A stretch of DNA of 64,000 bases from positions 2,936,501-3,000,500 of the forward strand of contig JAOTOL010001625.1 of the NCBI GenBank assembly GCA_034440575.1. Direction: 5' to 3'. The position numbers and the translations under genes are program-made. Below, piece after piece: positions 46,201 through 57,608 of this stretch (the stretch's first letter is position 1; the number at the start of each line of letters is the position of its first letter). The notes under the pieces were generated by a model. That model did not search any database, had not been told where the DNA came from, and was given only the letters and a program-made list of their open reading frames with translations. Origin of the DNA: Imbricaverruca yamaguchii (taxonomy: Eukaryota; Arthropoda; Thecostraca; Neoverrucidae).

Positions 46201-49200
46201 CGACCCTCCACGTGCTGGAAGTCGTGTTTATGCCTGGCGACACTCGCAGATGTAAAAGTAAACTGTAATGGTGGGGCTGAATCCGGATTTTTACGGAATC
46301 CGGAATTTCGGAATGCTTTGGAATGTCGGGAGGCGTGTGCGAGCGTCCGGTCGAAGGATTGAAAGAACCGTTACGCTCTTCGACGTCGGGTTGCATTTTG
46401 CGCAGGCTGCCCGGCACAGAGTGGCGGAGGGCAGTGGCAAGTAGACAAATTCATCCGGATGTGGAGACGTCCCAAACCCAGTATATTCCGGTTCGCCCAT
46501 GAGATATTTACTGTTTACTGGATGAACCAGATTGAATTTGCGGATGTGCGGTGGGCATGCGCGTACCATTAACATCGGTGTTTTCGCCAAGGTGCTGAGG
46601 TACTTGGTGACTTGATGGTAGATGTAGAAGGGGCGAGAAACTCGTGTGCTTAATGCTTTTTTCATCCATGGATTTTATGGGTCTTTTGCGCTGCTCCAGT
46701 CTTCGATGATAATTTTGTAAAAACAGGGCGCAATGAACGTACAATGCATCGGTAAGTGCAATGAATGCCGCGACACCACGCACCTACCATTATTAGTTTC
46801 AGAGCTGCCTCATCGTGATGGATGGTGTATTTATCTGTCTGGTCCGGATTACACCGCCTATATCCAGGCATGGATGGCATGCCATTGATGTTATCCAGAT
46901 CGCGTCGCAGGACATTGCCTGCTGTTCGCTGTCAATCATTTCGGTTCGAAGTGCAGATTCGTCGTTTTATTGCTTTTCTTGACGTGGAAAGTATGCGACC
47001 AATGACGATAGTGTCTTCTACGTTTAAATGCCCTCAAGTAACTAAATTTATCGTGTACGCATGTCTGCGTTCTTTTTAGGCACTTCTCGGTATCCTCGTT
47101 TGCTCTGATTCTGATGGGAATGATCTTGCTTGATACGAGTTCGAGCTTTTGGACCTTGTGCTCTCCAGATCAAGGAGGGGCGCTGCATAACCAATGCAGC
47201 TGATGCGTCAAAATAGCCAAGTAACTAACAGATCGAGGATAATTCGTCGTACTTGCTGTTGAAAGCCATTTTTGTACTGTACTTAAATTCACCCACCTGC
47301 CCTCCCTCTCGCCTTGGTGCACTAAAGGCGCCCCTGTGCAGGTTCGGTTGTGCCGAACGGCACTCTCCTTCGATTTTCTCCATCAGAGGCTTCCATACCA
47401 GAAGTCGGCGCCATCTAGAAGAAAGATGGCGACTCGTTAGATTACCCCATCCTGAGCAGGATTTCTGGGTCCTCCACTGCCATTCCATGACAATCTTCAT
47501 GTCCAGCTGTGTTGCGGTCTCCCGTTCCTCTGCTTCCGATTGTCATTCAGTCTCCTCTACTATTCATCCCGGGAAGCTGAAATACCGAGCAGGCAACTAG
47601 ATTTTAACCGAAGACAACAGTTTTTGGCAAAATCACCGCCCGCCAGGCTGTCTGCTCCCCGACTGCCTGCAGCCGCGCCCGACTCCCCTGTAGCCACCAC
47701 TGTTGCTACCTGTAACCACCACTGTTGCTACCTGTAACCATCACTGGCGCTACCTGTAACCACCACTGTTGCTACCTGTAACCACCACTGTTGCTACCTG
47801 TAACCATCACTGGCGCTACCTGTAACCACAACTGCCACCATCGGTGCTACCTGAAGCCACATGGTGCTAGCTGTAACCAACACTGGTGCTCACTGTAACT
47901 ACCACTGACTACTCTGTGGTGTCATTCGCCATCGCCCTTTGATTTCGTGAGTCGCTGACTTGACTTGACTTGACTTGACTTGACCTGACCTGACTCCTCT
48001 CTGCGTCTGCAGCCGACATCAAGCTGGCCGAATGGGGTCGCAAGGAGATCGTCATGGCCGAGAACGAAATGCCCGGTTTGATGTCGCTGCGCCGGAAGTA
48101 TGGCCCGCTCAAGGTGCTCAAGGGCGCGCGCATCGCCGGCTGCTTACACATGACCGTGCAGACGGCTGTGCTCATTGAAACGCTGACCGAGCTGGGCGCC
48201 CAGGTTAGTGCGTCGTTTCACCATGCCGCGGCGCTGCGGGCGTTTGGGAAATTATAGGTGTCGCTACACATGAATTGAATGATTGAATGAAAGCAATGTT
48301 GTGTGAAGGCAGTGTTGCTAGCGGACGAATTTTAAACATGTTGGGCTTTGCAGAATGTTGGAGTTGATATTGTCGACAAATGACTTTTTTGTTGATCATG
48401 ACAGTTGGGGAAGAATACCCCGATGCTTGTCACATCGATATGGTTTCCATTTGTTAATCTTCTGGTTGAATTCATTTAGTTTCATATATATTTTATGCTT
48501 AATAGCTTAATATTGTATTTCTAATATTGATTGTGCTGCCTTGAAGCTGGTATCCCGCTCGCGAATCAATTCCAACATCCGCCCATGTTGGGAGTCTTGC
48601 ACGCAACCAGAAAAAGTGGATGAACGGAGGCTGATCAATTCACGCATCTGTTCATGGGATTTTCAGATATATAAATTACCTCCACGTCCTCCCTTTAAGA
48701 GTATGTTGGTTTTGACTTTGGTATATATCGGTACATTCATCTGTGTGGAAACTGGCGGTGCCACCTATCCCATTCTCGCCTGTCCTAGCTGTATAGGGAC
48801 ACCATATGGTAGTATCATATGGAAATGCAAATTGTACCATTGTATGGAAACACTAGGTACCACACAACAGTGCCTTCTGGCAGCACTGCATACCCTGTTG
48901 CAGCTCGGTACGTTAGCGCCCTGCGCTAAAATCTGATGCGGGCCCGGTGTGTTGGTATTGGTTGGTAGCCCAGTGTGTTTGTGCCGTGCACAGGTGCAGT
49001 GGTGCAGCTGCAACATCTTCAGCACGCAGGACCACGCGGCCGCCGCCATCGCCGTGACGGGCGTGCCCGTGTACGCCTGGAAGGGCGAGACCGACGAGGA
49101 GTACGAATGGTGCATTGTGCAGACGCTCGTCTTCAAGGACGGCCAGGTGAGCGGCAGTGAGCAGCCCCCGTCTCCCCCTGTGTACCTTCAGGCCGTCCGC

Positions 49201-57608: not shown

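What the first reader, a model, noticed from the sequence alone, without database searches (positions are those of the whole stretch)
48013..57608. General pattern: splice-junction-nucleated minisatellites turn AHCY introns into decoy-splice-site fields
Three independent arrays in consecutive introns (4, 5, 6) each contain a functional splice site, with two donors and one acceptor involved. Intron 4 alone carries about 23 decoy GC donors in three blocks. I know of no described class of repeats that recurrently nucleates on splice junctions. Possible causes include replication slippage or break repair at junction-proximal R-loops, or selection for junction redundancy. A stop codon just inside each junction means errors would be degraded.
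Basis: inference. Interest (0 to 1): 0.93.

Follow-up and report, generated by a model that had tools for sequence, protein, structure and literature searches.

The report
Repeat arrays that copy splice junctions
In a genome that is likely a barnacle's, three introns of one enzyme gene contain repeat arrays that copy a predicted splice site together with a few bases of the neighbouring exon, and a small sample of other genes shows such arrays more often than random placement gives; this structure was known from lancelets and likely arises by local duplication that the gene tolerates.

Summary
AHCY (window 40170-57608) has three minisatellites that each enclose a predicted splice site plus exonic bases: donor of intron 4 (29-bp unit, 5 exonic nt, GC donor), donor of intron 5 (66-bp, 11 nt) and acceptor of intron 6 (41-bp, 24 nt). 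The three blocks of intron 4 are one array split by two transposon-like insertions. The class is not new: it matches amphioxus "mirages" (PMC3087553, PMC3902484, passages). In two AHCY-like genes and CCT chaperonin genes, 13 of 113 predicted junctions lie in such arrays, against 3.4 expected under uniform placement (0 of 10,000 simulations). The excess survives GC matching (11 against 2.5, at most 40 exonic nt), but is weaker in CCT alone (5 against 1.5, P 0.02). In AHCY itself arrays fill 31% of intron bases, so three hits are only mildly unusual (P 0.026). Best reading: mirages, formed by local duplication and tolerated; I found no report outside lancelets. Any role as decoy fields is untested.

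The parts
40170..40200 (+). AHCY coding exon 1 (MAGEKPAYKV, donor GTGAGT), not in an array
   Evidence: by match to the N-termini of P0006/P0007
48013..48203 (+). AHCY exon 2
   Evidence: open frame and homology
48994..49146 (+). AHCY exon 3
50121..50309 (+). AHCY exon 4, GC donor AAG|GCAAGT
50305..50452 (+). 29-bp array, block 1; encloses the donor of intron 4 with 5 exonic nt
50452..51939 (+). Insertion A inside the array; inverted-repeat arms of 35 nt at its ends (50451-50485 and 51906-51940, 89% complementary); 9-nt direct flank with one mismatch
51940..52199 (+). 29-bp array, block 2
52199..52475 (+). Insertion B inside the array; 8-nt direct flank GGTAGTGG; short imperfect inverted ends (CAGTGT); second copy in the window at 20316-20596 (89%)
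52476..52760 (+). 29-bp array, block 3
53789..54004 (+). AHCY exon 5
53994..54252 (+). 66-bp array; encloses the donor of intron 5 with 11 exonic nt
54826..55026 (+). AHCY exon 6
55127..56079 (+). 41-bp array; encloses the acceptor of intron 6 with 24 nt of exon 7 (VDRYRLSN)
56056..56250 (+). AHCY exon 7
57477..57608 (+). AHCY exon 8 with stop

Best explanation
Three minisatellites in introns 4, 5 and 6 of AHCY each repeat a predicted splice junction together with 5 to 24 bases of its exon, as the lancelet repeats called mirages do, and they likely arose by local tandem duplication across the junction and then grew by slippage or unequal exchange. Shown: unit anatomy, exonic bases that recur in the units, canonical or GC splice dinucleotides at the predicted sites, and an excess of such arrays at predicted junctions of other genes in this genome. 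Inferred: the copy next to the exon keeps coding and splicing intact, so selection lets the array stay; the other copies are decoys that are mostly ignored, and in AHCY their use would hit an early stop and likely be degraded. Part of the excess likely comes from GC-rich exon edges; the rest suggests that duplication starts more often within about 25 bp of a junction. Two later transposon-like insertions split the intron-4 array, and its blocks then likely homogenised apart.
For: Intron 6: the unit holds 24 nt that encode VDRYRL of AHCY, which points to copying from exon to intron. Intron 5: 11 exonic nt recur at 66-bp steps. Same anatomy in other genes: AHCY-like gene on C1408 (one donor, 9 nt) and on C1422 (two donors, three acceptors, 7-29 nt); CCT genes on C217 (two donors), C1273 (donor, acceptor), C912 (donor, acceptor) and C89 (acceptor), 5-53 nt, units viewed. 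79 of 94 copies at 65% identity or more keep GT/GC or AG; one of the 16 arrays (C1273 donor) had no copy at that threshold. Placement: AHCY-like plus CCT, 13 of 113 junctions spanned, mean 3.4 in 10,000 uniform simulations, none reaching 13; edges from 3 exonic to 25 intronic nt 8 against 1.3, none reaching 8. Three AHCY-family genes, up to 40 exonic nt: 9 against 0.87, 0 of 20,000. GC-matched, AHCY left out: 11 against 2.5 (P 6e-5, up to 40 exonic nt) and 13 against 5.1 (P 0.0024, up to 80). Edge density in the three AHCY-family genes: 8.3/kb at exon -30..-4 against about 0.5/kb deeper than 400 bp. Units not found outside AHCY in the 344,839 bases held (overlaps counted twice). No sense-strand surplus of donor-like motifs in the 75 other arrays.
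Against: In AHCY arrays fill 31% of intron bases and cover 3 of 12 junctions, no more than coverage predicts. CCT alone is only mildly significant (P 0.02-0.03). The 13 are uneven: five lie in one gene (C1422), and none of the 45 junctions on C1246, C991, C1412, C1388 and C1399 is spanned. GC at exon edges is 61% against 48.5% 300 bp inside, and GC matching raises the expectation. Of the 81 CCT junctions 33 were called from one exon alone, not as a frame-matched pair, and 6 of 81 score below 2; three of the seven spanned CCT junctions are single calls. In two acceptor arrays most copies have lost AG (1 of 6 and 1 of 5 keep it). Acceptor-like motifs in non-junction arrays differ between strands in mixed directions. 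Intron 4 has only 5 exonic nt. No RNA and no population data; one likely allele pair compared.
Confidence: 0.7

Rival explanations
1. Coincidence: this genome is so rich in GC-loving minisatellites that some fall on junctions, with no bias toward junctions.
For: 31% of AHCY intron bases in arrays; 25.8% of the C1422 stretch; AHCY alone P 0.026; CCT alone P 0.02-0.03.
Against: AHCY-like plus CCT 13 against 3.4 expected, 0 of 10,000 simulations; GC-matched 11 against 2.5. Neither null models purifying selection in exons, which should lower the expectation further (inference).
Confidence: 0.2
2. A mutational hot spot tied to transcription or splicing (R-loops, pausing, break repair) starts duplications at junctions.
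For: Excess confined to about 25 bp on the intron side (3 against 1.6 at 26-60 bp, P 0.20); no surplus of donor-like motifs in other arrays, so the donor motif alone does not explain it.
Against: No expression, R-loop or germline data; GC gradient explains part.
Confidence: 0.25
3. Selection keeps arrays because spare splice sites buffer loss of the real one.
For: 79 of 94 copies keep the splice dinucleotide; in AHCY the copies score about as well as the real site.
Against: In AHCY introns 4 to 6 the added stretch holds a stop codon, so a decoy cannot replace the real site there; overall the real site beats the mean copy in 10 of 15 arrays, and copies in some arrays have decayed.
Confidence: 0.05
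4. A dispersed satellite or transposon carrying splice-like units inserted at the junctions.
For: Two transposon-like insertions do sit in the intron-4 array.
Against: They interrupt a pre-existing array in register; units not found elsewhere in the 344,839 bases held; exonic codons inside the intron-6 unit. The whole-genome pattern search did not complete.
Confidence: 0.02

Closest known systems
Mirage minisatellites of amphioxus (Adh3, globins BflGb6 and BflGb9, PGBD5, troponin C)
   Same: Tandem repeats that span an exon-intron boundary, at 5' or 3' sites, units of 10 to about 160 bp, many copies with splice signals (passages of PMC3087553 and PMC3902484).
   Different: Host is likely a barnacle; three in one gene; a GC donor copied; an array split by two transposon-like insertions; excess over random placement measured in a sample.
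Intron gain by tandem duplication of AG/GT proto-splice sites (Rogers, as cited in PMC3087553)
   Same: Duplication across a splice site makes new splice signals.
   Different: Here an existing intron holds the copies; no new intron is shown or was tested for.
Ordinary intronic minisatellites (VNTRs)
   Same: Unit size, alike copies, mostly GC-rich.
   Different: The unit includes the junction and exon bases.

Membership tests
Mirage minisatellites (amphioxus) | Tandem repeat of minisatellite unit size | tested here: met
   29, 66 and 41 bp
Mirage minisatellites (amphioxus) | Unit spans an exon-intron boundary | tested here: met
   5, 11 and 24 exonic nt in AHCY; 13 more predicted junctions in AHCY-like and CCT genes
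Mirage minisatellites (amphioxus) | 5' or 3' boundary can be duplicated | tested here: met
   9 donors and 7 acceptors among the 16 arrays
Mirage minisatellites (amphioxus) | Many, not all, copies keep AG/GT signals | tested here: met
   79 of 94 copies, GC donors counted as kept
Mirage minisatellites (amphioxus) | Length instability between haplotypes or in soma | tested here: inconclusive
   One likely allele pair (L043/L044): 4 against 6 places above 72% identity to the junction, array 547 against 523 bp
Mirage minisatellites (amphioxus) | Normal splicing is not disturbed (RT-PCR) | not testable with these tools
   No RNA data
Dispersed transposon-borne repeat | Same unit at unrelated loci | tested here: not met
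   No hit outside AHCY in the 344,839 bases held, a small part of 767 Mb; whole-genome search unanswered

The most novel reading that the evidence does not exclude
Splice junctions are a mutational hot spot for tandem duplication in this lineage: about one junction in nine carries an array that copies it, through a process tied to transcription or splicing, arrived at independently in lancelets and barnacles and able to lengthen introns and seed new splice sites.
Probability: 0.3. Interest if true: 0.85.

Novelty: new member of a known kind. Interest (0 to 1): 0.58.

Why it matters
In the passages I saw, mirages are recorded gene by gene in lancelets and their origin is called unclear. A second animal group with several of them, and a placement test that shows an excess close to the junction, turns a curiosity into a question that annotated genomes can answer: do splice junctions attract tandem duplication? 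If so, it bears on how introns grow, how new splice sites arise and how the spliceosome picks one site among near-identical copies.

Tried and rejected
Three independent nucleations in intron 4: rejected, since two insertions split one array. Dispersed-repeat origin: not supported, whole-genome search unanswered. Splice motif alone as seed: no sense-strand donor surplus in 75 non-junction arrays. Intron-birth reading: not tested. First CCT table read minus-strand loci unturned; redone. C912 acceptor called at 10016 by script, corrected by eye to 10068 and used so. Pfam scan of 10 of the 87 window ORFs found only endonuclease and reverse-transcriptase domains. Dropped before counting CCT junctions: likely allelic copies L026, L035, L041, L044 and the long-open-frame L028; of 66 CCT matches, 65 were typed into the script (C1365 left out by oversight), 50 had sequence in hand and 45 were used. 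In each AHCY-like gene one exon between the seventh and eighth was not found. AHCY exon 1 was found late and its donor, outside arrays, is not in the counts. The four CCT genes fetched whole were chosen for compactness, when one (C217) was known to hold a spanning array.

Full report
What is there. The window (G000:C1392:2936501-3000500 of a 767-Mb genome) holds AHCY. Exons 2-8 join in one open frame; exon 1 lies at 40170-40200. The protein of exons 2-8 is 88% identical over its full length to Amphibalanus amphitrite AHCY and 90% to an unnamed entry, so the host is likely a thoracican barnacle; the species is not known. The predicted AHCY junctions are GT-AG except intron 4, which has a GC donor.

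Three arrays enclose junctions. Intron 4: 29-bp units from 50305, 5 exonic nt. Intron 5: 66-bp units from 53994, 11 exonic nt. Intron 6: 41-bp units that end at 56079, 24 nt inside exon 7, copying the codons of VDRYRLSN with substitutions. A read-through or an upstream acceptor meets a stop in each case.

Intron 4 in detail. Blocks at 50305-50452, 51940-52199 and 52476-52760 share the 29-bp unit. Between blocks 1 and 2 lies a stretch of about 1488 bp with 35-nt inverted repeats at its ends, 89% complementary, and a 9-nt direct flank with one mismatch. Between blocks 2 and 3 lies a 277-bp stretch with an 8-nt direct flank GGTAGTGG and short imperfect inverted ends CAGTGT/ACACTG, which the repeat finder did not list, and with a second copy in the window at 20316-20596, 89% identical. 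Taking out each stretch with one flank copy restores the 29-bp register: identity at lag 29 is 0.966 and 0.848 at the exact joint, and at most 0.85 and 0.74 at shifts of 1 to 6 bases. So one array was cut twice; the units differ between blocks more than within them, which suggests later local homogenisation. The 8-nt duplication and CAGTG ends recall hAT elements; that name is recalled, not tested.

Is it general? Two AHCY-like genes came with the AHCY family search and were fetched. CCT chaperonin genes were searched as a conserved many-exon family, with four genes fetched whole. AHCY-like junctions were placed by eye, CCT junctions by a script from frame, profile position and site score: 48 of 81 as frame-matched pairs, 33 from one exon. 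Arrays are Tandem Repeats Finder rows with period 10 or more and score 80 or more, merged within 20 bp. AHCY-like: 6 of 32 junctions inside arrays. CCT: 7 of 81. With AHCY 3 of 13: 16 of 126 in all. The CCT units were viewed; four of the seven are pair calls. None of the 45 junctions on C1246, C991, C1412, C1388 and C1399 is spanned. Further arrays stop 12-20 nt short of a junction on the intron side: 4 in AHCY-like genes, 4 in CCT (a fifth in the AHCY-like genes, -19, is listed but lies outside the span used).

Against chance. Uniform placement of the same arrays, AHCY-like plus CCT: 13 observed, 3.4 expected, 0 of 10,000; near edges 8 against 1.3, 0 of 10,000; 26-60 nt away 3 against 1.6, P 0.20. 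AHCY alone 3 against 0.7, P 0.026; AHCY-like 6 against 1.1, P 0.001; CCT 7 against 2.35, P 0.008. An earlier run on the three AHCY-family genes, up to 40 exonic nt, gave 9 against 0.87, 0 of 20,000. Exon edges are GC-rich (61%, 59% in the intron flank, 48.5% at 300 bp), and array edges are on the whole commoner beside GC-rich DNA, not monotonically. Matched for GC and without AHCY: 11 against 2.5 (P 6e-5) with up to 40 exonic nt, 13 against 5.1 (P 0.0024) with up to 80. CCT alone: 5 against 1.5 (P 0.02), 7 against 2.9 (P 0.03). The excess is thus about 2.5-fold to fourfold, real in this sample but small in number. In AHCY itself plain coverage (31%) explains 3 of 12, so that gene alone would hardly have shown a bias.

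Mechanism. Exonic bases that recur in the units show that the duplicated segment crossed the junction. In my gene models the site used is the exon-proximal copy; that follows from how arrays were counted, and only for AHCY did I check that decoys bring a stop. Copies keep GT/GC or AG in 79 of 94 cases, but only 1 of 6 and 1 of 5 in two acceptor arrays; the real site scores above the mean copy in 10 of 15 arrays (the site scores were trained on the AHCY-family junctions themselves). Junction arrays have longer units (27-96 bp, one merged row 287, against a median of 33) and fewer copies (median 2.9 against 5.2) than the 75 others; long units span a junction more easily, so this is expected. The simplest account is local duplication, expansion, and tolerance because the outer copy stays intact. 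Why duplication starts there more often is open: GC context explains part; the donor motif alone does not.

Known kind. [quoted passage not shown] PMC3902484 (passages read) adds PGBD5 and troponin C. Of PMC2812944 (tandem repeats in human paralogs) I saw the outline only. The primary Adh paper is not held. Seven answered paper searches showed no report outside lancelets in their listings, two of them capped at 12 of 73 and 12 of 28; subscription papers are mostly not held, so this is not proof.

Limits.

Noticed in passing
window 4780-6626: ORFs with endonuclease-reverse transcriptase (PF14529) and RVT_1 domains: likely a non-LTR retrotransposon.
   Followed up: no
window 44057-45146: 63-bp array, 17 copies, 97% matches, inside AHCY intron 1 and not at a junction.
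   Followed up: no
window 30063-32200: 34-bp array of 63 copies, the longest array in the window.
   Followed up: no
window 20316-20596 and 33966-34159: A second copy (89%) and two fragments of insertion B.
   Followed up: partly
L043 and L044; L025 and L026; L034 and L035; L040 and L041: Likely allelic contigs about 94-99% alike; the assembly seems to keep some haplotypes apart, so array alleles could be compared.
   Followed up: partly
L009-L019, L050-L057: Several arrays stop 12-20 nt short of a junction on the intron side, as if they keep clear of the splice signal.
   Followed up: partly
window 50310: AHCY intron 4 starts with GC, and its array copies carry GC donors too.
   Followed up: partly
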